This document shows, piece by piece, positions 30,415 through 60,583 of a stretch of DNA of 64,000 nucleotides. The stretch spans positions 1,352,501 to 1,416,500 of the forward strand of contig OU696570.1 in NCBI GenBank assembly GCA_916048095.2, read 5' to 3'. Every line of letters begins with the position of its first letter. Position 1 is the first letter of the stretch. The stretch is from Sacculina carcini (taxonomy: Eukaryota; Arthropoda; Thecostraca; Sacculinidae). The position numbers and the translations under genes were made by a program. The notes below the pieces were generated by a model, which saw only the letters and a program-made list of their open reading frames with translations, ran no database searches and was not told where the DNA came from.

Positions 30415-30415
30415 T

Positions 30416-30527: not shown

Positions 30528-30531
30528 GTCC

Positions 30532-31006
30532 TGTAGCGTGAGTTCAAGACCAGCGGATGTGAGAGCACGTGCGTGTATTTGCGTCGGCACACAGAAACGG
30601 AGACAAGCACACTGAAGGACGCCGAGACAACGAAAGAGAGCTCTGGCGGTAAAACGACAGCTCATATACCCACAGGAAATCAGCCTCGCGGCTTACGCGC
30701 ACCGCGAAAAACAAGAACATTCTTAGAAATTATAAAATATGGCAAAAATAAACATTACCCAAACAAAGTAAAAAGAGAGGTTTCATTTCCGATAAGAACA
30801 TATTTTTCACACAAAAAAAACATTAAAAACACTATAACATGAAAGCTGCGCACGGCGCAGCATAAGGTTCATGTGCGTCAGGCGAAGCTAACTCAAGAGT
30901 TTTCATAAAGCGCGAACCAATATTTCTGTCACATTTCACAAACAAATTATATAAAACCGCAACGCCATACGCAGAACAAAATGTGCAGGGAAACACAGAT
31001 GCTACA
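30532..31006 (-). repeat. Probable 3' LTR of a second Ty3 element
   Basis: About 475 bp, beginning TGTAGCATC and ending ACGCTACA on the minus strand (TG...CA). A TTTTATATAA TATA-like box lies near 30948-30957, and purine-rich GGTAGGGGAG lies just before its start. A 263-bp part (30581-30843) recurs at 54629 and 59434 fused to viral L. No intact opposite LTR is present. The other Ty3 element inserted exactly at its outer edge, sharing GTCC. Confidence 0.65.
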
Positions 31007-33138: not shown

Positions 33139-33922
33139 TATCCTATTCTATTCTCCATGGCAGAGAAATACCCAAATCAGCGTATCAGTGGCCACCTCAG
33201 CTCCCCGTTGTCAGCGGATGCATGTTCGCTGCATCGGGAGAGTCTGTTGAAGGACCCAAAATGCCATTATCACAGAAAAATGTATACTGCGTTGGCAAAC
33301 GCTCATGGACTTGACATGGCCACATTCTTGCGCCGATGCAAGACAGACCTCACCGACATGGACATCTGGGGACTCCTTGAGTCTGACCTGATGTCAAGGA
33401 TACGTCCTCCGAGCATCGATCTCATCAGGAAATGGATTGAATCATCAGCCAGATTGTTATTCGTCGGCAGCCACGCTTGGACCAACTGTTCAGCGTACGA
33501 CTGGCGCCACGTCTCTCAAGGCATCATGGATTCAGGTATCATTGAATACCTCATGGATTATCACAAAGCTGGAGTTCTAAAGCTGAAAATGCGACGACTT
33601 GAACTGGACTCTGTTGAAGTTTCCCGAATTTATCCTGGTCTAGTAATTGGTCCGAAGATTTCATGTGTCACAGTTAAATCACGTATGCTCTTGATGGAAA
33701 CCGGATTGGTAATCGGTGTATTGGACAAGCTTCAAGAAAAAGCACTGGTTTCGTTGCTCATGGCGGTAAAGGACATTGTAGAGCCCATCGCTAATCACTC
33801 ACGAGTTCAAGACTTCAAAGTCCTCGATCACGAGTTCACATCATTGAGAGAGAACCTCAAAAACGACTTCTGTTCAATCCAGAAGGTTCAAGAAGACTTG
33901 CCTCTGGCGTTTCTACAGTCGA

Positions 33923-35542
33923 CTGACCCTGTGGTGGCTAATGATGAGCTGAAGAGAGAATTGCTCAAGACAGTAGAAAATAAGCTGCTCAAAACCGACT
34001 ACCACTTCACTCGACGATTGACAGAGATTCGCGTCAGCGTCCCCTGGACACATCACCTGATTTCATCATCAGCTCTTGCCAAAATCTGGGGCCATCCGCT
34101 GATTAAATCAGAAACTGGATTCATCTCCCAAATGCACAGATGCTGCTCATTTGAATTGTCTGCGGTACCTCATACGCTACCAGTAGCTGCCATGATCAAA
34201 AAGATAATAGTGAGAAACCATTTCGTGGACCACAGCTCATGGCCCATGAAGACGATGAACGCAGATCACGCGGTGTTTGGACGGTTTGTAAGGACAAACC
34301 GGTGGCCCCGGACCGCTGTAGAGAGATCAATCACAATGCACGATTGGATGACCTATAGTCTCCGTGGATTGATGACATTCGACAGTGGTATGCCGCTGTA
34401 TGACTTGATATCTGATAAGTCGTTGTCGCCGAGACGCTCCTCTTGGGCCCAAGCGCTGGATCAGTGTACTTTCACACTCAGCGGCCAGAGGAAGCCTTCA
34501 CAACCACGGTGCTGCACCCGCGTAATTGATGAGTACATGTCCTCTCTCCAGCTCACTACGTGGAAAAGGTTGTCGCCAGCTTTGAAAAGTATGGCGACCT
34601 TCCGCGTGAGCAGAAAATCTTCACCCTGGTGAACAAGGAGTTGGAGCTCAAAGCGGAAGGGCGCACCTTTTGTAAACAGACGTTTCATACCCGCACGCTC
34701 CAAACTGTACGAGAGGAGAACGCTGCGAGGGTTTTGTCGAAGTTTAAGTACAGCACTATGACGCTGCGAGGGGTCGAGACTGACCATAAACTTGCTAGAT
34801 TGAGTCACTTTTCCGCCAGACGAGATTTGGGAGTAATTTACATTGCTCTCGATTTCGAAAAGTGGAACAATCGGTTCCGCTTTGAGACTACTGCTGCACC
34901 TTTCGGAGTTTTAGATGAAATTTTTGGTTTAAACTGCTTATTCAGAAACATACATAAAATCTATGAAAATTCTCTGGTAGTGTTCCAAGACGTTGGCTGT
35001 AGAGATGTGAGGTTGGATGAGCGAGGTGAACCCGAATGCGGTTATGGAGGGTATTGTGGTCACAGAGGAGGTTTTGAGGGAATGTCCCAGAAAGAGTGGA
35101 CGATTCTGACGTTAGCTGCTGTGCTTCATCACGGTGAGCAAGAGGATTACACCATAACATCATTGGGACAAGGAGACAACGTCGTCGTGTGCTTGCAGGT
35201 TCCGCCTCGCACAGACTCTGCCCGGCTCGTGGAGAGTTACGTTAAAAGTCTCACGGTGTACATGGCAAAGCTCAATTTGCCCCTGAAGAGGTCTGAAACA
35301 TTCATCAGTTCAGACTGCCTGGTCTATGGGCGCCAGGTATTCTTCAGAGGTGCTGAAGTGGAACAATGCTACAAGAAAATTCGACGTGCATTCCCTGATG
35401 GAAACGAAACTGTCATGTCAGTAGTCAATGATTTAGCATCAACAGCAACCGCTACTGAATCATCTTCTCGGGCAAGTCACAACTCTTTCCTTCCTACACT
35501 CGTCAATTGTTTTGTCACTCTCGAGTACTTGCACAGGGCTGG
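33923..35542 (+). pseudogene. RdRp-core unit 1 (divergent founder)
   Basis: The only unit with the CT insertion (34543-34547), A at 34021 (Thr for Ala) and A at 34312 (Thr for Pro). Confidence 0.9.
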
Positions 35543-37160
35543 CTGACCCTGTGGTGGCTAATGATGAGCTGAAGAGAGAATTGCTCAAGACAGTAGAAAA
35601 TAAGCTGCTCAAAACCGACTACCACTTCACTCGACGATTGGCAGAGATTCGCGTCAGCGTCCCCTGGACACATCACCTGATTTCATCATCAGCTCTTGCC
35701 AAAATCTGGGGCCATCCGCTGATTAAATCAGAAACTGGATTCATCTCCCAAATGCACAGATGCTGCTCATTTGAATTGTCTGCGGTACCTCATACGCTAC
35801 CAGTAGCTGCCATGATCAAAAAGATAATAGTGAGAAACCATTTCGTGGACCACAGCTCATGGCCCATGAAGACGATGAACGCAGATCACGCGGTGTTTGG
35901 ACGGTTTGTAAGGACAAACCGGTGGCCCCGGCCCGCTGTAGAGAGATCAATCACAATGCACGATTGGATGACCTATAGTCTCCGTGGATTGATGACATTC
36001 GACAGTGGTATGCCGCTGTATGACTTGATATCTGATAAGTCGTTGTCGCCGAGACGCTCCTCTTGGGCCCAAGCGCTGGATCAGTGTACTTTCACACTCA
36101 GCGGCCAGAGGAAGCCTTCACAACCACGGTGCTGCACCCGCGTAATTGATGAGTACATGTCCTCTCCAGCTCACTACGTGGAAAAGGTTGTCGCCAGCTT
36201 TGAAAAGTATGGCGACCTTCCGCGTGAGCAGAAAATCTTCACCCTGGTGAACAAGGAGTTGGAGCTCAAAGCGGAAGGGCGCACCTTTTGTAAACAGACG
36301 TTTCATACCCGCACGCTCCAAACTGTACGAGAGGAGAACGCTGCGAGGGTTTTGTCGAAGTTTAAGTACAGCACTATGACGCTGCGAGGGGTCGAGACTG
36401 ACCATAAACTTGCTAGATTGAGTCACTTTTCCGCCAGACGAGATTTGGGAGTAATTTACATTGCTCTCGATTTCGAAAAGTGGAACAATCGGTTCCGCTT
36501 TGAGACTACTGCTGCACCTTTCGGAGTTTTAGATGAAATTTTTGGTTTAAACTGCTTATTCAGAAACATACATAAAATCTATGAAAATTCTCTGGTAGTG
36601 TTCCAAGACGTTGGCTGTAGAGATGTGAGGTTGGATGAGCGAGGTGAACCCGAATGCGGTTATGGAGGGTATTGTGGTCACAGAGGAGGTTTTGAGGGAA
36701 TGTCCCAGAAAGAGTGGACGATTCTGACGTTAGCTGCTGTGCTTCATCACGGTGAGCAAGAGGATTACACCATAACATCATTGGGACAAGGAGACAACGT
36801 CGTCGTGTGCTTGCAGGTTCCGCCTCGCACAGACTCTGCCCGGCTCGTGGAGAGTTACGTTAAAAGTCTCACGGTGTACATGGCAAAGCTCAATTTGCCC
36901 CTGAAGAGGTCTGAAACATTCATCAGTTCAGACTGCCTGGTCTATGGGCGCCAGGTATTCTTCAGAGGTGCTGAAGTGGAACAATGCTACAAGAAAATTC
37001 GACGTGCATTCCCTGATGGAAACGAAACTGTCATGTCAGTAGTCAATGATTTAGCATCAACAGCAACCGCTACTGAATCATCTTCTCGGGCAAGTCACAA
37101 CTCTTTCCTTCCTACACTCGTCAATTGTTTTGTCACTCTCGAGTACTTGCACAGGGCTGG
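35543..37160 (+). pseudogene. RdRp-core unit 2
   Basis: Frame open through to TGA at 37162-37164; sequence as in full-length copy 2. Confidence 0.9.
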
Positions 37161-38778
37161 CTGACCCTGTGGTGGCTAATGATGAGCTGAAGAGAGAATT
37201 GCTCAAGACAGTAGAAAATAAGCTGCTCAAAACCGACTACCACTTCACTCGACGATTGGCAGAGATTCGCGTCAGCGTCCCCTGGACACATCACCTGATT
37301 TCATCATCAGCTCTTGCCAAAATCTGGGGCCATCCGCTGATTAAATCAGAAACTGGATTCATCTCCCAAATGCACAGATGCTGCTCATTTGAATTGTCTG
37401 CGGTACCTCATACGCTACCAGTAGCTGCCATGATCAAAAAGATAATAGTGAGAAACCATTTCGTGGACCACAGCTCATGGCCCATGAAGACGATGAACGC
37501 AGATCACGCGGTGTTTGGACGGTTTGTAAGGACAAACCGGTGGCCCCGGCCCGCTGTAGAGAGATCAATCACAATGCACGATTGGATGACCTATAGTCTC
37601 CGTGGATTGATGACATTCGACAGTGGTATGCCGCTGTATGACTTGATATCTGATAAGTCGTTGTCGCCGAGACGCTCCTCTTGGGCCCAAGCGCTGGATC
37701 AGTGTACTTTCACACTCAGCGGCCAGAGGAAGCCTTCACAACCACGGTGCTGCACCCGCGTAATTGATGAGTACATGTCCTCTCCAGCTCACTACGTGGA
37801 AAAGGTTGTCGCCAGCTTTGAAAAGTATGGCGACCTTCCGCGTGAGCAGAAAATCTTCACCCTGGTGAACAAGGAGTTGGAGCTCAAAGCGGAAGGGCGC
37901 ACCTTTTGTAAACAGACGTTTCATACCCGCACGCTCCAAACTGTACGAGAGGAGAACGCTGCGAGGGTTTTGTCGAAGTTTAAGTACAGCACTATGACGC
38001 TGCGAGGGGTCGAGACTGACCATAAACTTGCTAGATTGAGTCACTTTTCCGCCAGACGAGATTTGGGAGTAATTTACATTGCTCTCGATTTCGAAAAGTG
38101 GAACAATCGGTTCCGCTTTGAGACTACTGCTGCACCTTTCGGAGTTTTAGATGAAATTTTTGGTTTAAACTGCTTATTCAGAAACATACATAAAATCTAT
38201 GAAAATTCTCTGGTAGTGTTCCAAGACGTTGGCTGTAGAGATGTGAGGTTGGATGAGCGAGGTGAACCCGAATGCGGTTATGGAGGGTATTGTGGTCACA
38301 GAGGAGGTTTTGAGGGAATGTCCCAGAAAGAGTGGACGATTCTGACGTTAGCTGCTGTGCTTCATCACGGTGAGCAAGAGGATTACACCATAACATCATT
38401 GGGACAAGGAGACAACGTCGTCGTGTGCTTGCAGGTTCCGCCTCGCACAGACTCTGCCCGGCTCGTGGAGAGTTACGTTAAAAGTCTCACGGTGTACATG
38501 GCAAAGCTCAATTTGCCCCTGAAGAGGTCTGAAACATTCATCAGTTCAGACTGCCTGGTCTATGGGCGCCAGGTATTCTTCAGAGGTGCTGAAGTGGAAC
38601 AATGCTACAAGAAAATTCGACGTGCATTCCCTGATGGAAACGAAACTGTCATGTCAGTAGTCAATGATTTAGCATCAACAGCAACCGCTACTGAATCATC
38701 TTCTCGGGCAAGTCACAACTCTTTCCTTCCTACACTCGTCAATTGTTTTGTCACTCTCGAGTACTTGCACAGGGCTGG
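37161..38778 (+). pseudogene. RdRp-core unit 3
   Basis: No difference from unit 2 noticed; ends at TGA 38780-38782. Confidence 0.9.
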
Positions 38779-40396
38779 CTGACCCTGTGGTGGCTAATGA
38801 TGAGCTGAAGAGAGAATTGCTCAAGACAGTAGAAAATAAGCTGCTCAAAACCGACTACCACTTCACTCGACGATTGGCAGAGATTCGCGTCAGCGTCCCC
38901 TGGACACATCACCTGATTTCATCATCAGCTCTTGCCAAAATCTGGGGCCATCCGCTGATTAAATCAGAAACTGGATTCATCTCCCAAATGCACAGATGCT
39001 GCTCATTTGAATTGTCTGCGGTACCTCATACGCTACCAGTAGCTGCCATGATCAAAAAGATAATAGTGAGAAACCATTTCGTGGACCACAGCTCATGGCC
39101 CATGAAGACGATGAACGCAGATCACGCGGTGTTTGGACGGTTTGTAAGGACAAACCGGTGGCCCCGGCCCGCTGTAGAGAGATCAATCACAATGCACGAT
39201 TGGATGACCTATAGTCTCCGTGGATTGATGACATTCGACAGTGGTATGCCGCTGTATGACTTGATATCTGATAAGTCGTTGTCGCCGAGACGCTCCTCTT
39301 GGGCCCAAGCGCTGGATCAGTGTACTTTCACACTCAGCGGCCAGAGGAAGCCTTCACAACCACGGTTCTGCACCCGCGTAATTGATGAGTACATGTCCTC
39401 TCCAGCTCACTACGTGGAAAAGGTTGTCGCCAGCTTTGAAAAGTATGGCGACCTTCCGCGTGAGCAGAAAATCTTCACCCTGGTGAACAAGGAGTTGGAG
39501 CTCAAAGCGGAAGGGCGCACCTTTTGTAAACAGACGTTTCATACCCGCACGCTCCAAACTGTACGAGAGGAGAACGCTGCGAGGGTTTTGTCGAAGTTTA
39601 AGTACAGCACTATGACGCTGCGAGGGGTCGAGACTGACCATAAACTTGCTAGATTGAGTCACTTTTCCGCCAGACGAGATTTGGGAGTAATTTACATTGC
39701 TCTCGATTTCGAAAAGTGGAACAATCGGTTCCGCTTTGAGACTACTGCTGCACCTTTCGGAGTTTTAGATGAAATTTTTGGTTTAAACTGCTTATTCAGA
39801 AACATACATAAAATCTATGAAAATTCTCTGGTAGTGTTCCAAGACGTTGGCTGTAGAGATGTGAGGTTGGATGAGCGAGGTGAACCCGAATGCGGTTATG
39901 GAGGGTATTGTGGTCACAGAGGAGGTTTTGAGGGAATGTCCCAGAAAGAGTGGACGATTCTGACGTTAGCTGCTGTGCTTCATCACGGTGAGCAAGAGGA
40001 TTACACCATAACATCATTGGGACAAGGAGACAACGTCGTCGTGTGCTTGCAGGTTCCGCCTCGCACAGACTCTGCCCGGCTCGTGGAGAGTTACGTTAAA
40101 AGTCTCACGGTGTACATGGCAAAGCTCAATTTGCCCCTGAAGAGGTCTGAAACATTCATCAGTTCAGACTGCCTGGTCTATGGGCGCCAGGTATTCTTCA
40201 GAGGTGCTGAAGTGGAACAATGCTACAAGAAAATTCGACGTGCATTCCCTGATGGAAACGAAACTGTCATGTCAGTAGTCAATGATTTAGCATCAACAGC
40301 AACCGCTACTGAATCATCTTCTCGGGCAAGTCACAACTCTTTCCTTCCTACACTCGTCAATTGTTTTGTCACTCTCGAGTACTTGCACAGGGCTGG
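38779..40396 (+). pseudogene. RdRp-core unit 4 (G-to-T variant)
   Basis: G to T at 39367 changes Cys to Phe; the same change is in unit 7. Confidence 0.9.
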
Positions 40397-42014
40397 CTGA
40401 CCCTGTGGTGGCTAATGATGAGCTGAAGAGAGAATTGCTCAAGACAGTAGAAAATAAGCTGCTCAAAACCGACTACCACTTCACTCGACGATTGGCAGAG
40501 ATTCGCGTCAGCGTCCCCTGGACACATCACCTGATTTCATCATCAGCTCTTGCCAAAATCTGGGGCCATCCGCTGATTAAATCAGAAACTGGATTCATCT
40601 CCCAAATGCACAGATGCTGCTCATTTGAATTGTCTGCGGTACCTCATACGCTACCAGTAGCTGCCATGATCAAAAAGATAATAGTGAGAAACCATTTCGT
40701 GGACCACAGCTCATGGCCCATGAAGACGATGAACGCAGATCACGCGGTGTTTGGACGGTTTGTAAGGACAAACCGGTGGCCCCGGCCCGCTGTAGAGAGA
40801 TCAATCACAATGCACGATTGGATGACCTATAGTCTCCGTGGATTGATGACATTCGACAGTGGTATGCCGCTGTATGACTTGATATCTGATAAGTCGTTGT
40901 CGCCGAGACGCTCCTCTTGGGCCCAAGCGCTGGATCAGTGTACTTTCACACTCAGCGGCCAGAGGAAGCCTTCACAACCACGGTGCTGCACCCGCGTAAT
41001 TGATGAGTACATGTCCTCTCCAGCTCACTACGTGGAAAAGGTTGTCGCCAGCTTTGAAAAGTATGGCGACCTTCCGCGTGAGCAGAAAATCTTCACCCTG
41101 GTGAACAAGGAGTTGGAGCTCAAAGCGGAAGGGCGCACCTTTTGTAAACAGACGTTTCATACCCGCACGCTCCAAACTGTACGAGAGGAGAACGCTGCGA
41201 GGGTTTTGTCGAAGTTTAAGTACAGCACTATGACGCTGCGAGGGGTCGAGACTGACCATAAACTTGCTAGATTGAGTCACTTTTCCGCCAGACGAGATTT
41301 GGGAGTAATTTACATTGCTCTCGATTTCGAAAAGTGGAACAATCGGTTCCGCTTTGAGACTACTGCTGCACCTTTCGGAGTTTTAGATGAAATTTTTGGT
41401 TTAAACTGCTTATTCAGAAACATACATAAAATCTATGAAAATTCTCTGGTAGTGTTCCAAGACGTTGGCTGTAGAGATGTGAGGTTGGATGAGCGAGGTG
41501 AACCCGAATGCGGTTATGGAGGGTATTGTGGTCACAGAGGAGGTTTTGAGGGAATGTCCCAGAAAGAGTGGACGATTCTGACGTTAGCTGCTGTGCTTCA
41601 TCACGGTGAGCAAGAGGATTACACCATAACATCATTGGGACAAGGAGACAACGTCGTCGTGTGCTTGCAGGTTCCGCCTCGCACAGACTCTGCCCGGCTC
41701 GTGGAGAGTTACGTTAAAAGTCTCACGGTGTACATGGCAAAGCTCAATTTGCCCCTGAAGAGGTCTGAAACATTCATCAGTTCAGACTGCCTGGTCTATG
41801 GGCGCCAGGTATTCTTCAGAGGTGCTGAAGTGGAACAATGCTACAAGAAAATTCGACGTGCATTCCCTGATGGAAACGAAACTGTCATGTCAGTAGTCAA
41901 TGATTTAGCATCAACAGCAACCGCTACTGAATCATCTTCTCGGGCAAGTCACAACTCTTTCCTTCCTACACTCGTCAATTGTTTTGTCACTCTCGAGTAC
42001 TTGCACAGGGCTGG
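40397..42014 (+). pseudogene. RdRp-core unit 5
   Basis: Consensus type; ends at TGA 42016-42018. Confidence 0.9.
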
Positions 42015-43632
42015 CTGACCCTGTGGTGGCTAATGATGAGCTGAAGAGAGAATTGCTCAAGACAGTAGAAAATAAGCTGCTCAAAACCGACTACCACTTC
42101 ACTCGACGATTGGCAGAGATTCGCGTCAGCGTCCCCTGGACACATCACCTGATTTCATCATCAGCTCTTGCCAAAATCTGGGGCCATCCGCTGATTAAAT
42201 CAGAAACTGGATTCATCTCCCAAATGCACAGATGCTGCTCATTTGAATTGTCTGCGGTACCTCATACGCTACCAGTAGCTGCCATGATCAAAAAGATAAT
42301 AGTGAGAAACCATTTCGTGGACCACAGCTCATGGCCCATGAAGACGATGAACGCAGATCACGCGGTGTTTGGACGGTTTGTAAGGACAAACCGGTGGCCC
42401 CGGCCCGCTGTAGAGAGATCAATCACAATGCACGATTGGATGACCTATAGTCTCCGTGGATTGATGACATTCGACAGTGGTATGCCGCTGTATGACTTGA
42501 TATCTGATAAGTCGTTGTCGCCGAGACGCTCCTCTTGGGCCCAAGCGCTGGATCAGTGTACTTTCACACTCAGCGGCCAGAGGAAGCCTTCACAACCACG
42601 GTGCTGCACCCGCGTAATTGATGAGTACATGTCCTCTCCAGCTCACTACGTGGAAAAGGTTGTCGCCAGCTTTGAAAAGTATGGCGACCTTCCGCGTGAG
42701 CAGAAAATCTTCACCCTGGTGAACAAGGAGTTGGAGCTCAAAGCGGAAGGGCGCACCTTTTGTAAACAGACGTTTCATACCCGCACGCTCCAAACTGTAC
42801 GAGAGGAGAACGCTGCGAGGGTTTTGTCGAAGTTTAAGTACAGCACTATGACGCTGCGAGGGGTCGAGACTGACCATAAACTTGCTAGATTGAGTCACTT
42901 TTCCGCCAGACGAGATTTGGGAGTAATTTACATTGCTCTCGATTTCGAAAAGTGGAACAATCGGTTCCGCTTTGAGACTACTGCTGCACCTTTCGGAGTT
43001 TTAGATGAAATTTTTGGTTTAAACTGCTTATTCAGAAACATACATAAAATCTATGAAAATTCTCTGGTAGTGTTCCAAGACGTTGGCTGTAGAGATGTGA
43101 GGTTGGATGAGCGAGGTGAACCCGAATGCGGTTATGGAGGGTATTGTGGTCACAGAGGAGGTTTTGAGGGAATGTCCCAGAAAGAGTGGACGATTCTGAC
43201 GTTAGCTGCTGTGCTTCATCACGGTGAGCAAGAGGATTACACCATAACATCATTGGGACAAGGAGACAACGTCGTCGTGTGCTTGCAGGTTCCGCCTCGC
43301 ACAGACTCTGCCCGGCTCGTGGAGAGTTACGTTAAAAGTCTCACGGTGTACATGGCAAAGCTCAATTTGCCCCTGAAGAGGTCTGAAACATTCATCAGTT
43401 CAGACTGCCTGGTCTATGGGCGCCAGGTATTCTTCAGAGGTGCTGAAGTGGAACAATGCTACAAGAAAATTCGACGTGCATTCCCTGATGGAAACGAAAC
43501 TGTCATGTCAGTAGTCAATGATTTAGCATCAACAGCAACCGCTACTGAATCATCTTCTCGGGCAAGTCACAACTCTTTCCTTCCTACACTCGTCAATTGT
43601 TTTGTCACTCTCGAGTACTTGCACAGGGCTGG
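42015..43632 (+). pseudogene. RdRp-core unit 6
   Basis: Consensus type; ends at TGA 43634-43636. Confidence 0.9.
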
Positions 43633-45250
43633 CTGACCCTGTGGTGGCTAATGATGAGCTGAAGAGAGAATTGCTCAAGACAGTAGAAAATAAGCTGCTC
43701 AAAACCGACTACCACTTCACTCGACGATTGGCAGAGATTCGCGTCAGCGTCCCCTGGACACATCACCTGATTTCATCATCAGCTCTTGCCAAAATCTGGG
43801 GCCATCCGCTGATTAAATCAGAAACTGGATTCATCTCCCAAATGCACAGATGCTGCTCATTTGAATTGTCTGCGGTACCTCATACGCTACCAGTAGCTGC
43901 CATGATCAAAAAGATAATAGTGAGAAACCATTTCGTGGACCACAGCTCATGGCCCATGAAGACGATGAACGCAGATCACGCGGTGTTTGGACGGTTTGTA
44001 AGGACAAACCGGTGGCCCCGGCCCGCTGTAGAGAGATCAATCACAATGCACGATTGGATGACCTATAGTCTCCGTGGATTGATGACATTCGACAGTGGTA
44101 TGCCGCTGTATGACTTGATATCTGATAAGTCGTTGTCGCCGAGACGCTCCTCTTGGGCCCAAGCGCTGGATCAGTGTACTTTCACACTCAGCGGCCAGAG
44201 GAAGCCTTCACAACCACGGTTCTGCACCCGCGTAATTGATGAGTACATGTCCTCTCCAGCTCACTACGTGGAAAAGGTTGTCGCCAGCTTTGAAAAGTAT
44301 GGCGACCTTCCGCGTGAGCAGAAAATCTTCACCCTGGTGAACAAGGAGTTGGAGCTCAAAGCGGAAGGGCGCACCTTTTGTAAACAGACGTTTCATACCC
44401 GCACGCTCCAAACTGTACGAGAGGAGAACGCTGCGAGGGTTTTGTCGAAGTTTAAGTACAGCACTATGACGCTGCGAGGGGTCGAGACTGACCATAAACT
44501 TGCTAGATTGAGTCACTTTTCCGCCAGACGAGATTTGGGAGTAATTTACATTGCTCTCGATTTCGAAAAGTGGAACAATCGGTTCCGCTTTGAGACTACT
44601 GCTGCACCTTTCGGAGTTTTAGATGAAATTTTTGGTTTAAACTGCTTATTCAGAAACATACATAAAATCTATGAAAATTCTCTGGTAGTGTTCCAAGACG
44701 TTGGCTGTAGAGATGTGAGGTTGGATGAGCGAGGTGAACCCGAATGCGGTTATGGAGGGTATTGTGGTCACAGAGGAGGTTTTGAGGGAATGTCCCAGAA
44801 AGAGTGGACGATTCTGACGTTAGCTGCTGTGCTTCATCACGGTGAGCAAGAGGATTACACCATAACATCATTGGGACAAGGAGACAACGTCGTCGTGTGC
44901 TTGCAGGTTCCGCCTCGCACAGACTCTGCCCGGCTCGTGGAGAGTTACGTTAAAAGTCTCACGGTGTACATGGCAAAGCTCAATTTGCCCCTGAAGAGGT
45001 CTGAAACATTCATCAGTTCAGACTGCCTGGTCTATGGGCGCCAGGTATTCTTCAGAGGTGCTGAAGTGGAACAATGCTACAAGAAAATTCGACGTGCATT
45101 CCCTGATGGAAACGAAACTGTCATGTCAGTAGTCAATGATTTAGCATCAACAGCAACCGCTACTGAATCATCTTCTCGGGCAAGTCACAACTCTTTCCTT
45201 CCTACACTCGTCAATTGTTTTGTCACTCTCGAGTACTTGCACAGGGCTGG
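43633..45250 (+). pseudogene. RdRp-core unit 7 (G-to-T variant)
   Basis: G to T at 44221, at the same unit offset (588) as in unit 4. Confidence 0.9.
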
Positions 45251-46868
45251 CTGACCCTGTGGTGGCTAATGATGAGCTGAAGAGAGAATTGCTCAAGACA
45301 GTAGAAAATAAGCTGCTCAAAACCGACTACCACTTCACTCGACGATTGGCAGAGATTCGCGTCAGCGTCCCCTGGACACATCACCTGATTTCATCATCAG
45401 CTCTTGCCAAAATCTGGGGCCATCCGCTGATTAAATCAGAAACTGGATTCATCTCCCAAATGCACAGATGCTGCTCATTTGAATTGTCTGCGGTACCTCA
45501 TACGCTACCAGTAGCTGCCATGATCAAAAAGATAATAGTGAGAAACCATTTCGTGGACCACAGCTCATGGCCCATGAAGACGATGAACGCAGATCACGCG
45601 GTGTTTGGACGGTTTGTAAGGACAAACCGGTGGCCCCGGCCCGCTGTAGAGAGATCAATCACAATGCACGATTGGATGACCTATAGTCTCCGTGGATTGA
45701 TGACATTCGACAGTGGTATGCCGCTGTATGACTTGATATCTGATAAGTCGTTGTCGCCGAGACGCTCCTCTTGGGCCCAAGCGCTGGATCAGTGTACTTT
45801 CACACTCAGCGGCCAGAGGAAGCCTTCACAACCACGGTGCTGCACCCGCGTAATTGATGAGTACATGTCCTCTCCAGCTCACTACGTGGAAAAGGTTGTC
45901 GCCAGCTTTGAAAAGTATGGCGACCTTCCGCGTGAGCAGAAAATCTTCACCCTGGTGAACAAGGAGTTGGAGCTCAAAGCGGAAGGGCGCACCTTTTGTA
46001 AACAGACGTTTCATACCCGCACGCTCCAAACTGTACGAGAGGAGAACGCTGCGAGGGTTTTGTCGAAGTTTAAGTACAGCACTATGACGCTGCGAGGGGT
46101 CGAGACTGACCATAAACTTGCTAGATTGAGTCACTTTTCCGCCAGACGAGATTTGGGAGTAATTTACATTGCTCTCGATTTCGAAAAGTGGAACAATCGG
46201 TTCCGCTTTGAGACTACTGCTGCACCTTTCGGAGTTTTAGATGAAATTTTTGGTTTAAACTGCTTATTCAGAAACATACATAAAATCTATGAAAATTCTC
46301 TGGTAGTGTTCCAAGACGTTGGCTGTAGAGATGTGAGGTTGGATGAGCGAGGTGAACCCGAATGCGGTTATGGAGGGTATTGTGGTCACAGAGGAGGTTT
46401 TGAGGGAATGTCCCAGAAAGAGTGGACGATTCTGACGTTAGCTGCTGTGCTTCATCACGGTGAGCAAGAGGATTACACCATAACATCATTGGGACAAGGA
46501 GACAACGTCGTCGTGTGCTTGCAGGTTCCGCCTCGCACAGACTCTGCCCGGCTCGTGGAGAGTTACGTTAAAAGTCTCACGGTGTACATGGCAAAGCTCA
46601 ATTTGCCCCTGAAGAGGTCTGAAACATTCATCAGTTCAGACTGCCTGGTCTATGGGCGCCAGGTATTCTTCAGAGGTGCTGAAGTGGAACAATGCTACAA
46701 GAAAATTCGACGTGCATTCCCTGATGGAAACGAAACTGTCATGTCAGTAGTCAATGATTTAGCATCAACAGCAACCGCTACTGAATCATCTTCTCGGGCA
46801 AGTCACAACTCTTTCCTTCCTACACTCGTCAATTGTTTTGTCACTCTCGAGTACTTGCACAGGGCTGG
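45251..46868 (+). pseudogene. RdRp-core unit 8
   Basis: Consensus type; ends at TGA 46870-46872. Confidence 0.9.
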
Positions 46869-48486
46869 CTGACCCTGTGGTGGCTAATGATGAGCTGAAG
46901 AGAGAATTGCTCAAGACAGTAGAAAATAAGCTGCTCAAAACCGACTACCACTTCACTCGACGATTGGCAGAGATTCGCGTCAGCGTCCCCTGGACACATC
47001 ACCTGATTTCATCATCAGCTCTTGCCAAAATCTGGGGCCATCCGCTGATTAAATCAGAAACTGGATTCATCTCCCAAATGCACAGATGCTGCTCATTTGA
47101 ATTGTCTGCGGTACCTCATACGCTACCAGTAGCTGCCATGATCAAAAAGATAATAGTGAGAAACCATTTCGTGGACCACAGCTCATGGCCCATGAAGACG
47201 ATGAACGCAGATCACGCGGTGTTTGGACGGTTTGTAAGGACAAACCGGTGGCCCCGGCCCGCTGTAGAGAGATCAATCACAATGCACGATTGGATGACCT
47301 ATAGTCTCCGTGGATTGATGACATTCGACAGTGGTATGCCGCTGTATGACTTGATATCTGATAAGTCGTTGTCGCCGAGACGCTCCTCTTGGGCCCAAGC
47401 GCTGGATCAGTGTACTTTCACACTCAGCGGCCAGAGGAAGCCTTCACAACCACGGTGCTGCACCCGCGTAATTGATGAGTACATGTCCTCTCCAGCTCAC
47501 TACGTGGAAAAGGTTGTCGCCAGCTTTGAAAAGTATGGCGACCTTCCGCGTGAGCAGAAAATCTTCACCCTGGTGAACAAGGAGTTGGAGCTCAAAGCGG
47601 AAGGGCGCACCTTTTGTAAACAGACGTTTCATACCCGCACGCTCCAAACTGTACGAGAGGAGAACGCTGCGAGGGTTTTGTCGAAGTTTAAGTACAGCAC
47701 TATGACGCTGCGAGGGGTCGAGACTGACCATAAACTTGCTAGATTGAGTCACTTTTCCGCCAGACGAGATTTGGGAGTAATTTACATTGCTCTCGATTTC
47801 GAAAAGTGGAACAATCGGTTCCGCTTTGAGACTACTGCTGCACCTTTCGGAGTTTTAGATGAAATTTTTGGTTTAAACTGCTTATTCAGAAACATACATA
47901 AAATCTATGAAAATTCTCTGGTAGTGTTCCAAGACGTTGGCTGTAGAGATGTGAGGTTGGATGAGCGAGGTGAACCCGAATGCGGTTATGGAGGGTATTG
48001 TGGTCACAGAGGAGGTTTTGAGGGAATGTCCCAGAAAGAGTGGACGATTCTGACGTTAGCTGCTGTGCTTCATCACGGTGAGCAAGAGGATTACACCATA
48101 ACATCATTGGGACAAGGAGACAACGTCGTCGTGTGCTTGCAGGTTCCGCCTCGCACAGACTCTGCCCGGCTCGTGGAGAGTTACGTTAAAAGTCTCACGG
48201 TGTACATGGCAAAGCTCAATTTGCCCCTGAAGAGGTCTGAAACATTCATCAGTTCAGACTGCCTGGTCTATGGGCGCCAGGTATTCTTCAGAGGTGCTGA
48301 AGTGGAACAATGCTACAAGAAAATTCGACGTGCATTCCCTGATGGAAACGAAACTGTCATGTCAGTAGTCAATGATTTAGCATCAACAGCAACCGCTACT
48401 GAATCATCTTCTCGGGCAAGTCACAACTCTTTCCTTCCTACACTCGTCAATTGTTTTGTCACTCTCGAGTACTTGCACAGGGCTGG
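46869..48486 (+). pseudogene. RdRp-core unit 9
   Basis: Consensus type; ends at TGA 48488-48490. Confidence 0.9.
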
Positions 48487-50104
48487 CTGACCCTGTGGTG
48501 GCTAATGATGAGCTGAAGAGAGAATTGCTCAAGACAGTAGAAAATAAGCTGCTCAAAACCGACTACCACTTCACTCGACGATTGGCAGAGATTCGCGTCA
48601 GCGTCCCCTGGACACATCACCTGATTTCATCATCAGCTCTTGCCAAAATCTGGGGCCATCCGCTGATTAAATCAGAAACTGGATTCATCTCCCAAATGCA
48701 CAGATGCTGCTCATTTGAATTGTCTGCGGTACCTCATACGCTACCAGTAGCTGCCATGATCAAAAAGATAATAGTGAGAAACCATTTCGTGGACCACAGC
48801 TCATGGCCCATGAAGACGATGAACGCAGATCACGCGGTGTTTGGACGGTTTGTAAGGACAAACCGGTGGCCCCGGCCCGCTGTAGAGAGATCAATCACAA
48901 TGCACGATTGGATGACCTATAGTCTCCGTGGATTGATGACATTCGACAGTGGTATGCCGCTGTATGACTTGATATCTGATAAGTCGTTGTCGCCGAGACG
49001 CTCCTCTTGGGCCCAAGCGCTGGATCAGTGTACTTTCACACTCAGCGGCCAGAGGAAGCCTTCACAACCACGGTGCTGCACCCGCGTAATTGATGAGTAC
49101 ATGTCCTCTCCAGCTCACTACGTGGAAAAGGTTGTCGCCAGCTTTGAAAAGTATGGCGACCTTCCGCGTGAGCAGAAAATCTTCACCCTGGTGAACAAGG
49201 AGTTGGAGCTCAAAGCGGAAGGGCGCACCTTTTGTAAACAGACGTTTCATACCCGCACGCTCCAAACTGTACGAGAGGAGAACGCTGCGAGGGTTTTGTC
49301 GAAGTTTAAGTACAGCACTATGACGCTGCGAGGGGTCGAGACTGACCATAAACTTGCTAGATTGAGTCACTTTTCCGCCAGACGAGATTTGGGAGTAATT
49401 TACATTGCTCTCGATTTCGAAAAGTGGAACAATCGGTTCCGCTTTGAGACTACTGCTGCACCTTTCGGAGTTTTAGATGAAATTTTTGGTTTAAACTGCT
49501 TATTCAGAAACATACATAAAATCTATGAAAATTCTCTGGTAGTGTTCCAAGACGTTGGCTGTAGAGATGTGAGGTTGGATGAGCGAGGTGAACCCGAATG
49601 CGGTTATGGAGGGTATTGTGGTCACAGAGGAGGTTTTGAGGGAATGTCCCAGAAAGAGTGGACGATTCTGACGTTAGCTGCTGTGCTTCATCACGGTGAG
49701 CAAGAGGATTACACCATAACATCATTGGGACAAGGAGACAACGTCGTCGTGTGCTTGCAGGTTCCGCCTCGCACAGACTCTGCCCGGCTCGTGGAGAGTT
49801 ACGTTAAAAGTCTCACGGTGTACATGGCAAAGCTCAATTTGCCCCTGAAGAGGTCTGAAACATTCATCAGTTCAGACTGCCTGGTCTATGGGCGCCAGGT
49901 ATTCTTCAGAGGTGCTGAAGTGGAACAATGCTACAAGAAAATTCGACGTGCATTCCCTGATGGAAACGAAACTGTCATGTCAGTAGTCAATGATTTAGCA
50001 TCAACAGCAACCGCTACTGAATCATCTTCTCGGGCAAGTCACAACTCTTTCCTTCCTACACTCGTCAATTGTTTTGTCACTCTCGAGTACTTGCACAGGG
50101 CTGG
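48487..50104 (+). pseudogene. RdRp-core unit 10
   Basis: Consensus type; ends at TGA 50106-50108. Confidence 0.9.
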
Positions 50105-51722
50105 CTGACCCTGTGGTGGCTAATGATGAGCTGAAGAGAGAATTGCTCAAGACAGTAGAAAATAAGCTGCTCAAAACCGACTACCACTTCACTCGACGAT
50201 TGGCAGAGATTCGCGTCAGCGTCCCCTGGACACATCACCTGATTTCATCATCAGCTCTTGCCAAAATCTGGGGCCATCCGCTGATTAAATCAGAAACTGG
50301 ATTCATCTCCCAAATGCACAGATGCTGCTCATTTGAATTGTCTGCGGTACCTCATACGCTACCAGTAGCTGCCATGATCAAAAAGATAATAGTGAGAAAC
50401 CATTTCGTGGACCACAGCTCATGGCCCATGAAGACGATGAACGCAGATCACGCGGTGTTTGGACGGTTTGTAAGGACAAACCGGTGGCCCCGGCCCGCTG
50501 TAGAGAGATCAATCACAATGCACGATTGGATGACCTATAGTCTCCGTGGATTGATGACATTCGACAGTGGTATGCCGCTGTATGACTTGATATCTGATAA
50601 GTCGTTGTCGCCGAGACGCTCCTCTTGGGCCCAAGCGCTGGATCAGTGTACTTTCACACTCAGCGGCCAGAGGAAGCCTTCACAACCACGGTGCTGCACC
50701 CGCGTAATTGATGAGTACATGTCCTCTCCAGCTCACTACGTGGAAAAGGTTGTCGCCAGCTTTGAAAAGTATGGCGACCTTCCGCGTGAGCAGAAAATCT
50801 TCACCCTGGTGAACAAGGAGTTGGAGCTCAAAGCGGAAGGGCGCACCTTTTGTAAACAGACGTTTCATACCCGCACGCTCCAAACTGTACGAGAGGAGAA
50901 CGCTGCGAGGGTTTTGTCGAAGTTTAAGTACAGCACTATGACGCTGCGAGGGGTCGAGACTGACCATAAACTTGCTAGATTGAGTCACTTTTCCGCCAGA
51001 CGAGATTTGGGAGTAATTTACATTGCTCTCGATTTCGAAAAGTGGAACAATCGGTTCCGCTTTGAGACTACTGCTGCACCTTTCGGAGTTTTAGATGAAA
51101 TTTTTGGTTTAAACTGCTTATTCAGAAACATACATAAAATCTATGAAAATTCTCTGGTAGTGTTCCAAGACGTTGGCTGTAGAGATGTGAGGTTGGATGA
51201 GCGAGGTGAACCCGAATGCGGTTATGGAGGGTATTGTGGTCACAGAGGAGGTTTTGAGGGAATGTCCCAGAAAGAGTGGACGATTCTGACGTTAGCTGCT
51301 GTGCTTCATCACGGTGAGCAAGAGGATTACACCATAACATCATTGGGACAAGGAGACAACGTCGTCGTGTGCTTGCAGGTTCCGCCTCGCACAGACTCTG
51401 CCCGGCTCGTGGAGAGTTACGTTAAAAGTCTCACGGTGTACATGGCAAAGCTCAATTTGCCCCTGAAGAGGTCTGAAACATTCATCAGTTCAGACTGCCT
51501 GGTCTATGGGCGCCAGGTATTCTTCAGAGGTGCTGAAGTGGAACAATGCTACAAGAAAATTCGACGTGCATTCCCTGATGGAAACGAAACTGTCATGTCA
51601 GTAGTCAATGATTTAGCATCAACAGCAACCGCTACTGAATCATCTTCTCGGGCAAGTCACAACTCTTTCCTTCCTACACTCGTCAATTGTTTTGTCACTC
51701 TCGAGTACTTGCACAGGGCTGG
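50105..51722 (+). pseudogene. RdRp-core unit 11
   Basis: Consensus type; ends at TGA 51724-51726. Confidence 0.9.
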
Positions 51723-54700
51723 CTGACCCTGTGGTGGCTAATGATGAGCTGAAGAGAGAATTGCTCAAGACAGTAGAAAATAAGCTGCTCAAAACCGACT
51801 ACCACTTCACTCGACGATTGGCAGAGATTCGCGTCAGCGTCCCCTGGACACATCACCTGATTTCATCATCAGCTCTTGCCAAAATCTGGGGCCATCCGCT
51901 GATTAAATCAGAAACTGGATTCATCTCCCAAATGCACAGATGCTGCTCATTTGAATTGTCTGCGGTACCTCATACGCTACCAGTAGCTGCCATGATCAAA
52001 AAGATAATAGTGAGAAACCATTTCGTGGACCACAGCTCATGGCCCATGAAGACGATGAACGCAGATCACGCGGTGTTTGGACGGTTTGTAAGGACAAACC
52101 GGTGGCCCCGGCCCGCTGTAGAGAGATCAATCACAATGCACGATTGGATGACCTATAGTCTCCGTGGATTGATGACATTCGACAGTGGTATGCCGCTGTA
52201 TGACTTGATATCTGATAAGTCGTTGTCGCCGAGACGCTCCTCTTGGGCCCAAGCGCTGGATCAGTGTACTTTCACACTCAGCGGCCAGAGGAAGCCTTCA
52301 CAACCACGGTGCTGCACCCGCGTAATTGATGAGTACATGTCCTCTCCAGCTCACTACGTGGAAAAGGTTGTCGCCAGCTTTGAAAAGTATGGCGACCTTC
52401 CGCGTGAGCAGAAAATCTTCACCCTGGTGAACAAGGAGTTGGAGCTCAAAGCGGAAGGGCGCACCTTTTGTAAACAGACGTTTCATACCCGCACGCTCCA
52501 AACTGTACGAGAGGAGAACGCTGCGAGGGTTTTGTCGAAGTTTAAGTACAGCACTATGACGCTGCGAGGGGTCGAGACTGACCATAAACTTGCTAGATTG
52601 AGTCACTTTTCCGCCAGACGAGATTTGGGAGTAATTTACATTGCTCTCGATTTCGAAAAGTGGAACAATCGGTTCCGCTTTGAGACTACTGCTGCACCTT
52701 TCGGAGTTTTAGATGAAATTTTTGGTTTAAACTGCTTATTCAGAAACATACATAAAATCTATGAAAATTCTCTGGTAGTGTTCCAAGACGTTGGCTGTAG
52801 AGATGTGAGGTTGGATGAGCGAGGTGAACCCGAATGCGGTTATGGAGGGTATTGTGGTCACAGAGGAGGTTTTGAGGGAATGTCCCAGAAAGAGTGGACG
52901 ATTCTGACGTTAGCTGCTGTGCTTCATCACGGTGAGCAAGAGGATTACACCATAACATCATTGGGACAAGGAGACAACGTCGTCGTGTGCTTGCAGGTTC
53001 CGCCTCGCACAGACTCTGCCCGGCTCGTGGAGAGTTACGTTAAAAGTCTCACGGTGTACATGGCAAAGCTCAATTTGCCCCTGAAGAGGTCTGAAACATT
53101 CATCAGTTCAGACTGCCTGGTCTATGGGCGCCAGGTATTCTTCAGAGGTGCTGAAGTGGAACAATGCTACAAGAAAATTCGACGTGCATTCCCTGATGGA
53201 AACGAAACTGTCATGTCAGTAGTCAATGATTTAGCATCAACAGCAACCGCTACTGAATCATCTTCTCGGGCAAGTCACAACTCTTTCCTTCCTACACTCG
53301 TCAATTGTTTTGTCACTCTCGAGTACTTGCACAGGGCTGGCTGTCTAGCAGACTCGCTGACAGTAGACGATATGGTCGCCATCATGCTATCTACATATCC
53401 GATTGGCGGGATCTCACAACTTTCACTCTTTTCCCATGTCATCAGAGGCCAGGAGGACCCGGTGACTTCGTCGCTCTCAATTGTGCTCCACATTATGAAA
53501 TGTGTTGACTGCCAATGTTGTGTCTCCCTGGCCTCTTTGAGAAGACATGTGAGGATCATTCCTTCACGCAATGTGGATAAGACAATGTTGCTCGAAGCAC
53601 CCGCCAGTTTGAATGTGGATCGCCCGACAATGAAGCATAGATGGCTCAGAGATATGTGTGAGAAGGTGTTGCGTGCCCGAGTGACAAATCCAGAGCTTAC
53701 TGTATGGTTCTCTCACGATGACGATGACCACACACAACGTCTCATTGACCTCCTGTTCTCGTCTACGCCTCTGTTTCCCGCATGGATTTCTGAGATTTTC
53801 AGATGCTCAGTGTCAGGCATTACGAAACGGTTGACGTCACGACTGACCAATGTCTCGACATTAGTCCAATCTGTTGCTCTTGAGATGTTAGACGATGGTC
53901 TGAAGATACTCTTGTCGGAATATACTGCTGAATGTGCAAATATTCGTCGTTTTCTGGTGAACGCTGACCGCGGAGTTTCAATACTCGAGCTTCTCACGAG
54001 ATTCAAATGCTCTATGCTCACCGCACAGTACTTGAGAAAACTTACATGGGGAGTTGAGCTAGAAGGTATATCCTCGCCCTCTCCTTGTGAGCAATTCCTT
54101 CTCGTACGGTCTGACGACTTTAGTGGCGAATTCGCTCACGTCACTGTGTCTCCTGCGGACTGTGAATATGATTCAATGACTACAACCAGAGGACCGTGGC
54201 CACCATACCTCGGGAGCCGCACGCAGGAGAAAATCACAATGAATCCCGCTCTAGACCTCGAAGTTCTTTCTCTCAAACATGAGTCCAAGCGCTTATGTCA
54301 ACTGCTCGCCTGGTGTCGACAAAGCCAGCTCGGAAATTACGAGGCAGTGGTTCTGCAAGAACTCTCTCGAGTTCTCAGCTGTCTGGACTTTGATATGACT
54401 AGCGACGACATCCACAAAATGAACATCGCCATATACGAGGGCGGGACTGTTGACCACAGATTGTCATCTGTATATCTTACCAGGTCTCAGTCACCAAATT
54501 GTACTTACAATGCGGGAACCCATGTGAGTGTGTCAACGTCGTCTTTCAACAACTTGACCAAGGCACTAGACTTGACGATCACCTATCAAAGCTTGATCAG
54601 CTATGCAATAACCGGATCGTGCATCATAGCGTCGGCACACAGAAACGGAGACAAGCACACTGAAGGACGCCGAGACAACGAAAGAGAGCTCTGGCGGTAA
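51723..54700 (+). pseudogene. RdRp-core unit 12 continuing into the capping domain
   Basis: Unit 12 lacks the recombinant junction at its right end and reads on (CTGTCTAGCAG at 53341) through the PRNTase region. The frame is open to TAA at 54698-54700. The last 23 codons, from 54629, are LTR-derived. Confidence 0.9.
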
Positions 54701-54889
54701 AACGACAGCTCATATACCCACAGGAAATCAGCCTCGCGGCTTACGCGCACCGCGAAAAACAAGAACATTCTTAGAAATTATAAAATATGGCAAAAATAAA
54801 CATTACCCAAACAAAGTAAAAAGAGAGGTTTCATTTCCGATAAGAACATATTTTTCACACAAAAAAACCATTAAAAACACTATAACATG
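54629..54889 (-). repeat. Ty3 LTR fragment fused to the viral L 3' end (copy 1 side)
   Basis: Matches 30581-30843 of the second Ty3 LTR, starting at GCGTCGGCACAC and ending at TATAACATGA. The LTR part with the TATA-like box is missing. It supplies the last codons and the stop of the L frame. Confidence 0.88.
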
Positions 54890-55257
54890 ATGTTGTTGTT
54901 GTTGTTGTTGTTGGTTAATGCACATAACACTGTTGAGGTTCTAGTGCAGTATATATGGTTTTCGATTTGCGCTAGCCGTCAGCGTCTGTGTTCTTGTCTC
55001 TTCTGGAAGAGTGATATGAATTGATGGAAACTATCCAGCGGAGGAGTTTATATGACAATTATATGTGAGGATGAGGAAATGGCCAGAAGGATTATCATAT
55101 GAAATCGAGAAGTTTGGTGGATATTAGGAACTGCCTCAGAGGTTCGGTAAATTCGGTTTGGTAAAGAAGAGTATCTAGACTTGGGGGTGAGGAGAGTTCA
55201 TCAGTCATGATTGATCTTTGTCTTGCGAATTTTCCACAATGCAGCATCAGGTGTGTT
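54890..55257 (-). mobile_element. LINE 3'-end fragment with (CAA)n tail
   Basis: On the minus strand, codons THLMLHCGKFARQRSIMTDE resemble the C-terminal zinc-knuckle region of RNase H-bearing LINEs. A stop at 55095, a 3' UTR and a (CAA)n tail follow, written (TTG)n at 54890-54914. It is about 370 bp, so strongly 5' truncated. It joins Ty3 RNase H in frame on its 5' side. Confidence 0.7.
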
Positions 55258-55745
55258 ACACTGTTGATAGATCGTGACAGACAATCCGCGACCACATTTT
55301 CACAGCCACGAATGTACTGCACGTCGGCTACATACTCAGTGATAAGTCCCCAGTGGCGCTGCTGGCGATCCAGCTTAGCCGGTCGCTGACTACGGAAAGC
55401 TGTGATCATGGGCTTGTGGTCTGTCATGAGTGTGACTGACCTGCCTTCAATGCAATGGCGGAAATGTACAACGGCCAGATACGCCGCCAACAACTCTCTG
55501 TCGTAGGTGGAGTAGCGCTGTTCTGTGGCAGACAATTTGCGAGAGAAAAACGAGATCGGTTTCGCCTCGCCGTCCACCATCTGGTGGAGTGCGGCCCCAA
55601 CCGCTCGACTCGATGCATCAGTCACTAGGATGAAATGGATGAGGAAGCTGGCAAGCATTGCTCAGCATGACTTTACTGGCCTCGAACGCGTTGTCAGCAG
55701 CCTCATTCCAATCCAATTGTTTTGATTTGGGCTGTGTTCGCATTA
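55258..55745 (-). pseudogene. Ty3 RNase H fragment, copy 2, with 17-bp deletion
   Basis: Matches 32637-33140 of the second Ty3 element. 17 bp present in the other two copies are missing at about 55635, which shifts the frame within the RNase H start. The frame 55095-55658 runs from here into the LINE fragment. Confidence 0.88.
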
Positions 55746-55761
55746 TCCTATTCTATTCTCC

Positions 55762-60567: not shown

Positions 60568-60583
60568 TCCTATTCTATTCTCC

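What the first reader, a model, noticed from the sequence alone, without database searches (positions are those of the whole stretch)
33923..53340. Twelve exact head-to-tail copies of a viral polymerase core in host DNA
The RdRp-core segment of an endogenous L gene (residues 256-795, containing the catalytic motifs) is repeated 12 times with one identical junction showing 3-bp microhomology (CTG). Tandem amplification of just the polymerase core of a non-retroviral RNA virus is something I do not know to be described. One breakpoint event followed by unequal exchange or rolling-circle-type amplification would explain the identical junctions. Near-zero divergence means either a very recent event, ongoing homogenisation, or an assembly artefact.
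Basis: partly seen in the sequence, partly recalled or inferred. Interest (0 to 1): 0.92.

Follow-up and report, generated by a model that had tools for sequence, protein, structure and literature searches.

The report
Nested repeat array of viral polymerase DNA
In what looks like an arthropod chromosome, a piece of an RNA virus's polymerase gene joined to a jumping gene has been copied into a repeat-within-a-repeat array; the ingredients are known, but so orderly an array made from an RNA-virus gene seems unusual.

Summary
Twelve head-to-tail copies of a 1,618-bp segment (L residues ~256-795, RdRp core) lie at 33921-53338, with identical junctions showing CTG microhomology. In copies 2-12, two differ by one SNP; copy 1 has two private substitutions and a 2-bp insertion.

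This is the inner level of a nested array: a ~4.8-kb outer unit (gypsy RNaseH fragment, L fragment, LTR fragment, end of a LINE-like repeat) occurs five times, running 12 kb past the window and holding 12, 1, 1, 1 and 2 inner units. The inner junction occurs 12 times in the 264-Mb assembly, all at this locus.

The L fragment replaces gag-protease-RT of a Ty3/gypsy provirus flanked by GTCC on both sides; a later element split one LTR. The outer unit contains that later element, so the outer amplification happened in chromosomal DNA. Most likely: two microhomology tandem duplications, then unequal exchange, as published for transposon-born satellites. Junctions shift frame, so no multi-polymerase protein is encoded. 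Other L loci (C23, C29, C22) are also tandemly duplicated, but so is one of four L-free control loci, so this is probably not specific to L. Copy number needs long-read checking.

The parts
25908..30527 (-). gypsy1: Ty3/gypsy provirus (pol ORF 26256-29507, DUF7041 ORF 29489-30352), LTRs about 25908-26019 and 30416-30527, with GTCC on both sides
   Evidence: Pfam; self-BLAST and flanks
30528..30531 (.). GTCC, left target-site duplication of the gypsy2::L provirus (right partner at window-numbered 81655-81658, outside the window)
30532..31006 (-). gypsy2 LTR (475 bp, TGTAGC...GCTACA)
   Evidence: LTR boundaries from dispersed copies
31153..33147 (-). gypsy2 RNaseH-integrase ORF; gypsy2 homology ends at 33138, where the L-derived sequence begins
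   Evidence: Pfam; comparison with an intact gypsy2 copy
33157..33922 (+). L start: ATG at 33157, residues 1 to ~255, preceded by an 18-nt leader-like stretch
33921..53338 (+). Inner array: 12 copies of the 1,618-bp RdRp-core unit (first is 1,620 bp); 11 identical junctions with CTG microhomology
53339..54628 (+). L downstream part to about residue 1,224 (includes part of the capping region, PF14318), then cut off
54629..54890 (-). Fragment of the second gypsy2 LTR, joined directly to the cut L end (49 bp into the LTR)
54891..55257 (-). 365-367 bp end of a dispersed LINE-like repeat that split the LTR (TTG run at its edge)
   Evidence: genome search; LTR resumes at window-numbered 81464; a zinc-knuckle ORF lies in the element beyond the window
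32636..55257 (+). Outer copy O1 (with 12 inner units)
55258..60062 (+). Outer copy O2 (1 inner unit); L open for 1,224 codons from ATG 55762
60063..64000 (+). Outer copy O3 (1 inner unit), runs to 64884; O4 64885-69689 (1 unit) and O5 69690-76112 (2 units) follow outside the window

Best explanation
A fragment of L from an undescribed mononegavirus-like virus was joined to a Ty3/gypsy element (gypsy2), replacing its gag-protease-RT part in the opposite orientation. The chimera sits in the chromosome between two LTRs and a GTCC duplication (shown). How the join arose is inferred: template switching of a gypsy reverse transcriptase is favoured, but repair-type insertion into an existing provirus is not excluded. 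A LINE-like element later split one LTR (shown by resumption of the LTR on its far side). Two tandem duplications then arose at short microhomologies: a 1,618-bp inner one (CTG) and a ~4.8-kb outer one (AC, between RNaseH and the end of the inserted element). Once duplicated, the array grew and shrank by unequal exchange or gene conversion (inferred from the 12/1/1/1/2 pattern and discordant variants). It behaves as a nascent, non-coding satellite-like array. No function is shown.
For: Same junction sequence at 12 inner sites and only at this locus. Four identical outer junctions with 2-bp overlap. The outer unit contains the end of a repeat that is dispersed elsewhere and interrupts the gypsy2 LTR; after O5 the LTR resumes about 5.7 kb on, at 81464, and ends GCTACA|GTCC, matching the left GTCC. 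Intact gypsy2 copy L030 versus C1: positions 4671-6923 are replaced by L; that stretch of L030 holds the DUF7041 and protease ORFs and the RT end of pol. Variants are discordant along the array: the 17-bp stretch is kept in O1 and O3 but missing in O2, O4 and O5; T1040C is shared by O4 and the second unit of O5; the 591 SNP is in units 4 and 7 only. Outer copies differ by 1-8 substitutions in ~4.8 kb while the provirus LTRs differ at 3 of 426 compared sites, so the array is younger or homogenised. A published route from TE to satellite by microhomology joining and then non-allelic recombination exists (PMC12628747, passages).
Against: No reads: copy number is as assembled. The order of inner and outer duplication is not resolved, because the inner junction is in O1 and O5 only. 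Rolling-circle amplification of the inner unit would leave a similar trace. A template-switch origin is inferred from anatomy alone. The LTR count leaves out 27 bp at the edge of the later element, which hold 4 further differences.
Confidence: 0.75

Rival explanations
1. Assembly artefact: the assembler unrolled or misjoined a shorter repeat, so the 12 copies are not in the chromosome.
For: Eleven units are almost identical; no reads could be examined; SNP 591 in two units could be a polishing error.
Against: Copies carry different, discordant variants and different unit counts; the longest stretch without a distinguishing site is about 9.1 kb (44221 to 53339), within reach of ordinary long reads; the only N run in the 124 kb held (window-numbered -9999 to 114000) lies at -4999 to 0, outside the array.
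Confidence: 0.12
2. The inner unit was amplified as an extrachromosomal circle by rolling-circle copying and re-entered the locus by homologous recombination.
For: Nine of 11 units are identical, with a uniform junction.
Against: No copy of the junction lies elsewhere in the assembly; outer copies with 1, 1, 1 and 2 units look like ordinary growth and shrinkage; nothing specifically demands a circle.
Confidence: 0.15
3. The repeats were made during reverse transcription (template switching that copied the L template repeatedly) before integration.
For: L is joined to gypsy pol here, and gypsy-type ORFs abut or lie near L at C22, C29, C16 and C23.
Against: The outer unit contains 365 bp of an element that inserted into the LTR after integration, so the outer level is chromosomal; the inner level lies inside it with the same kind of 2-3-bp junction.
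Confidence: 0.05
4. Selection favours amplified L sequence, for example as a source of antiviral piRNA or siRNA, so L loci are repeatedly duplicated in this genome.
For: Direct repeats of 150 bp or more at 96% or more identity that include L sequence occur at 5 of 10 L loci examined (C1, C23, C29, C22, C16; tandem at the first four). Among 14 other gypsy2 loci listed with no known L nearby (40 of 338 candidates scored), none shows a repeated internal segment within the element.
Against: An L-free control locus, gypsy1 at C1:9.21 Mb, is itself a tandem duplication with an 8,674-bp period at 99.93% identity (1 of 4 control loci fetched); a second (C3:6.43 Mb) has a 334-bp direct repeat 7.9 kb apart. 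Two gypsy2 copies on C2 lie 11.8 kb apart in the same orientation. C7 has a 1.5-kb tandem repeat without L. More sequence was examined at L loci that had shown several matches. No small-RNA data.
Confidence: 0.08

Closest known systems
Satellite DNA arising from transposable elements (PMC12628747, passages; PMC9659126, search listing and start of abstract)
   Same: A TE-derived segment duplicated at microhomology, then expanded by non-allelic recombination into head-to-tail copies.
   Different: Here the repeated core is a non-retroviral RNA-virus polymerase fragment carried inside a gypsy provirus, with two nested unit lengths at one locus.
Tandemly duplicated endogenous bornavirus-like N elements of afrotherians (PMC4982594, passages)
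   Same: A non-retroviral mononegavirus gene integrated and tandemly duplicated at the DNA level.
   Different: Those are coding elements reported as kept by selection; here 17 partial polymerase cores with frame-breaking junctions where units meet.
nrEVE clusters of Aedes albopictus (PMC7448346, passages) and paralogous nrEVEs on one contig of Bactrocera oleae (PMC10689555, passages)
   Same: Viral integrations in clusters, described as rearranged or duplicated.
   Different: No regular nested tandem array was described in the passages seen.
Jingchuvirales EVEs with Gypsy/Pao elements in arthropods, including Anakin (PMC10084718, passages)
   Same: EVE flanked by LTR-element sequence, rarely inside complete element boundaries.
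   Different: That is glycoprotein capture; here L in antisense replaces gag-protease-RT, and the locus is then amplified.
eEBLL-1, an L-derived ORF in Eptesicus bats (PMC4865735, passages)
   Same: Endogenous mononegavirus L with an open frame and RdRp motifs.
   Different: A long-preserved gene attributed to LINE-1; here a truncated, recent, multiplied fragment.

Membership tests
Non-retroviral EVE from Mononegavirales L | Homology to L with RdRp motifs | tested here: met
   PF00946 at 6.1e-77, 1.7e-13 and 1e-95 in three frames of the array, PF14318 at 4.5e-20 in one; motifs DFEKWN, GGFEGMSQKEW, QGDN; PDB L proteins, best 6.6e-34
Non-retroviral EVE from Mononegavirales L | Lies in host chromosome | tested here: met
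   Contig C1 is 14.86 Mb with host-type DNA and genes either side
Lispiviridae (arli-like) origin | Close and specific grouping with that family | tested here: inconclusive
   Best named hit is brine shrimp arlivirus 1 at 23% identity, but a gammacytorhabdovirus also hits at 23%; no tree was made
Ty3/gypsy provirus carrying L | Two LTRs, pol domains, short target-site duplication | tested here: met
   LTR 30532-31006 and split second LTR, RNaseH and integrase, GTCC on both sides; gag, protease and RT absent
Mobile gypsy element that spreads L as cargo | The same L-gypsy junction at several loci | tested here: not met
   In 1.5 kb upstream of L at 7 loci the only nucleotide matches between loci are 42 bp or shorter; protein-level gypsy similarity exists between C1 and C16 or C29. 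Gypsy pol near L is 38-43% identical in protein to gypsy2 at C22, C29, C16. C23 L is joined to gypsy2 itself, but at another gypsy2 position (L030 4961 versus 4670) and not at the L start
Satellite DNA | Head-to-tail near-identical repeats | tested here: met
Satellite DNA | Large or multi-locus array | tested here: not met
   Inner junction at one locus only, 17 inner copies: at most nascent
piRNA cluster | Gonadal small RNAs of piRNA size from the locus | not testable with these tools
   No small-RNA data

The most novel reading that the evidence does not exclude
This genome repeatedly and independently turns integrated mononegavirus L fragments into tandem arrays (C1, C23, C29, C22), with the RdRp core in three of the four. 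The C1 array could then be a newborn satellite kept because it raises the dose of antiviral small RNA. (Odds lowered from 0.12 after the L-free tandem control.)
Probability: 0.07. Interest if true: 0.8.

Novelty: new variant of a known kind. Interest (0 to 1): 0.45.

Why it matters
It catches an RNA-virus gene as it becomes tandem-repeat DNA, with most steps legible: joining to a gypsy element, a later insertion, two microhomology duplications and exchange. It links EVE biology with the origin of satellites. The unit counts 12/1/1/1/2 offer a ready marker to measure exchange rates in a population. Whether viral fragments are amplified more than other TE-rich DNA in this genome is testable; the controls here do not show it.

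Tried and rejected
Chance repeats: rejected. A multi-polymerase gene: rejected, since each junction shifts the frame. A gypsy element that spreads L as cargo: considered because gypsy ORFs abut L at several loci; not supported, because the upstream flanks at 7 loci (C1, C29, C25, C16, C20, C19, C31) share only a short leader before the ATG, about 18-45 nt judged by eye. C22 matched only from residue 28, and C23 and C7 gave no start, so these three were not compared. My first reading that the LTR ends near 30838 was wrong; dispersed copies show it ends at 31006. L-specific amplification: weakened by an L-free tandem duplication among the controls. Exogenous relatives in IMG/VR: none confirmed in two scans; phage collection none. 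A full census of L-like loci was not obtained: the protein search did not complete, and one search scored 20 of 21 candidates and listed 5 of the 17 cores at C1. Literature: the titles and abstract starts listed describe no nested tandem array of an RNA-virus EVE; one search found no paper, one search listed 15 of 19, one search listed 4 of 5 and one search listed 15 of 192, in an openly licensed library only. One search concerned motif C. Passages were also seen in PMC10288550, PMC6379468, PMC10675110 and PMC6932829 without such an array.
Full report
OBSERVATION. The window is C1:1352501-1416500 of a 264-Mb, 43-contig assembly. A 31-mer self-comparison shows a dominant period of 1,618 bp and a second period of 4,805/4,822 bp. 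The inner units start at 33921 and then every 1,618 bp from 35541 to 51721; of units 2-12, nine are identical and two (units 4 and 7) carry one SNP; unit 1 carries two private substitutions and a 2-bp insertion. The junction has a 3-bp CTG overlap between the two parent sequences. It occurs 12 times in the whole assembly, 11 in this array and once at window-numbered 72561.

BEYOND THE WINDOW. The right flank shows that the window cuts through a larger array. An outer unit begins at 32636, 55258, 60063, 64885 and 69690 and the array ends at 76112. The four outer junctions are identical over 27 bases and show a 2-bp AC overlap, with one base differing from the right-hand parent. The five outer copies hold 12, 1, 1, 1 and 2 inner units, 17 in all.

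ANATOMY. Left of L lies a Ty3/gypsy element (gypsy1) with LTRs and GTCC on both sides. Next to it a second element, gypsy2, has a 475-bp LTR at 30532-31006 whose limits follow from dispersed copies, the best 98-99% identical. Compared with a full-length gypsy2 copy (L030), the C1 copy keeps LTR, integrase and RNaseH, loses positions 4671-6923 and instead has the L fragment in the opposite orientation; L ends 49 bp inside the other LTR. In L030 the lost stretch holds DUF7041 and protease ORFs and the RT end of pol. The second LTR is interrupted by a dispersed repeat with a TTG run at its edge; an ORF inside that element beyond the window has a zinc knuckle at the Pfam cut-off, so 'LINE-like' is a label, not a test. 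The LTR resumes at 81464 and ends GCTACA followed by GTCC at 81655-81658, matching GTCC at 30528-30531. A shared 12-base stretch (ACTATAACATGA) on both sides of the interruption fits its target-site duplication. So the L fragment sits within one provirus.

WHAT THE L FRAGMENT IS. Pfam gives PF00946 and part of PF14318. Outer copies O2, O3 and O4 are open for 1,224 codons from the ATG; O1 and O5 are not. The nearest named proteins are 22-23% identical: brine shrimp arlivirus 1, OKIAV95, Nasoule virus, a gammacytorhabdovirus. Nine other contigs of the same genome hold L-like sequence: rows over 1 kb are 67-75% identical in nucleotides, shorter rows 70-80%, and C7 has only one short row; most are broken into several frames, though the C16 core is open for 545 codons. 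The C1 and C16 cores differ at 8.6% of nonsynonymous and 88% of synonymous sites: the divergence looks like protein-constrained viral evolution before insertion, so these are best read as separate integrations. At seven loci the resemblance before the ATG covers about 18-45 nt by eye, and the 1.5 kb further upstream shares no nucleotide match over 42 bp; this fits an L mRNA 5' end or gene start as the joining point (inference).

MECHANISM. The outer unit includes 365 bp of an element that entered the LTR after integration, so the outer amplification is chromosomal. Both levels have 2-3-bp microhomology. Variants are discordant along the array: the 17-bp stretch is present in O1 and O3 and absent in O2, O4 and O5; T1040C is in O4 and the second unit of O5; SNP 591 is in units 4 and 7. 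O4 could be a collapsed O5-type copy. This fits unequal exchange or gene conversion. Outer copies differ by 1-8 substitutions per ~4.8 kb (0.02-0.17%), one inner unit per copy counted; the two LTRs differ at 3 of 426 sites, 0.7%, leaving out 27 bp at the element's edge with 4 more differences. At a recalled mutation rate of about 3e-9 per site per generation the provirus would be about 1.2 million generations old and the array at most about 0.3 million; both are rough, and homogenisation makes the second unreliable. The published model for TE-born satellites, microhomology-initiated joining then non-allelic recombination, fits well (PMC12628747, passages).

CODING. Sixteen of 17 inner units are open in the L frame, but 1,618 is not a multiple of 3, so each junction shifts frame. 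Openness reflects youth and is not evidence of selection.

RECURRENCE AND CONTROLS. C23 holds about 3.2 copies of a 3.7-kb L unit at 98.8-99.1% identity, joined at its right end to gypsy2 pol; C29 has a 2.47-kb L unit at 96.2%; C22 has a 1,365-bp repeat 6,153 bp apart at 99.3% that includes the L C-terminal region; C16 has a 1.4-kb repeat 11.5 kb apart at 97.8% that includes an L piece. C31, C25, C20, C19 and C7 show no L repeat of 150 bp or more in the 10 kb examined (C31 has a 119-bp one within L; C7 has a 1.5-kb tandem repeat without L). The amount of sequence examined differs: 30 kb for C23, 16 kb for C29 and C16, 10 kb for the rest. Against an L-specific effect: of four L-free control loci fetched, the gypsy1 copy at C1:9.21 Mb is a tandem duplication with an 8,674-bp period at 99.93% identity over 8.8 kb, C3:6.43 Mb has a 334-bp direct repeat 7.9 kb apart, and L030 and L032 show only their LTRs. 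Fourteen other gypsy2 loci listed (40 of 338 candidates scored; C23 left out because it lies beside L, and a 68%-identical C2 row left out as another family) show no repeated internal segment, but two of them on C2 lie 11.8 kb apart in the same orientation.

ARTEFACT. Distinguishing variants leave at most about 9.1 kb unmarked inside the inner array, and the stretch from 1 to 114,000 in window numbering has no N. Reads are needed.

LITERATURE. Tandem duplication of an EVE is known (afrotherian EBLN, PMC4982594, passages), as are duplicated nrEVE clusters in Aedes (PMC7448346, passages) and gypsy-flanked EVEs (PMC10084718, passages). The listings (partly capped, titles and abstract starts only) show no nested array like this one.

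Noticed in passing
window 35541-37158 and loci on C16, C19, C20, C22, C23, C25, C29, C31: Motif C reads QGDNV at all nine contigs where it was found (one C29 copy has GDNA), while the consensus of the aligned named relatives reads GDNQ; with strong constraint between loci this suggests a virus lineage with an unusual motif C.
   Followed up: partly
C23:3618529-3630315 (L015-L016): A second L tandem array (3.7-kb unit, about 3.2 copies) joined directly to pol of the same gypsy2 family.
   Followed up: partly
C29:6159790-6166946 (L018-L019): Older (96%) L tandem duplication with a 2.47-kb unit that includes about 185 bp upstream of L with weak gypsy pol similarity.
   Followed up: partly
C1:9209001-9226500 (L033-L034): A gypsy1 copy lies in an 8,674-bp tandem duplication at 99.93% identity, without L.
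   Followed up: partly
upstream of L ATG at C1, C29, C25, C16, C20, C19, C31: A short leader is shared by eye; in C25, C19 and C31 it includes a GTA(A)G(A/T)AAAACAAT-like stretch that may be the viral gene junction.
   Followed up: partly
window-numbered 82039-84909 (L029:39-2909): An uninterrupted 957-codon WD40-protein frame (Elongator subunit 2-like by recall) starts about 380 bp after the provirus ends.
   Followed up: no
window-numbered 99.7-102.6 kb: A different tandem repeat of about 85-89% identity between copies.
   Followed up: no
C1 4.3-10.9 Mb: Many TTAGG runs lie inside the chromosome contig, not only at ends.
   Followed up: no
window 13473-13538: SNORD31-like snoRNA on the minus strand.
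   Followed up: no
window-numbered -4999 to 0: A run of exactly 5,000 N directly left of the window: a gap or a withheld stretch.
   Followed up: no
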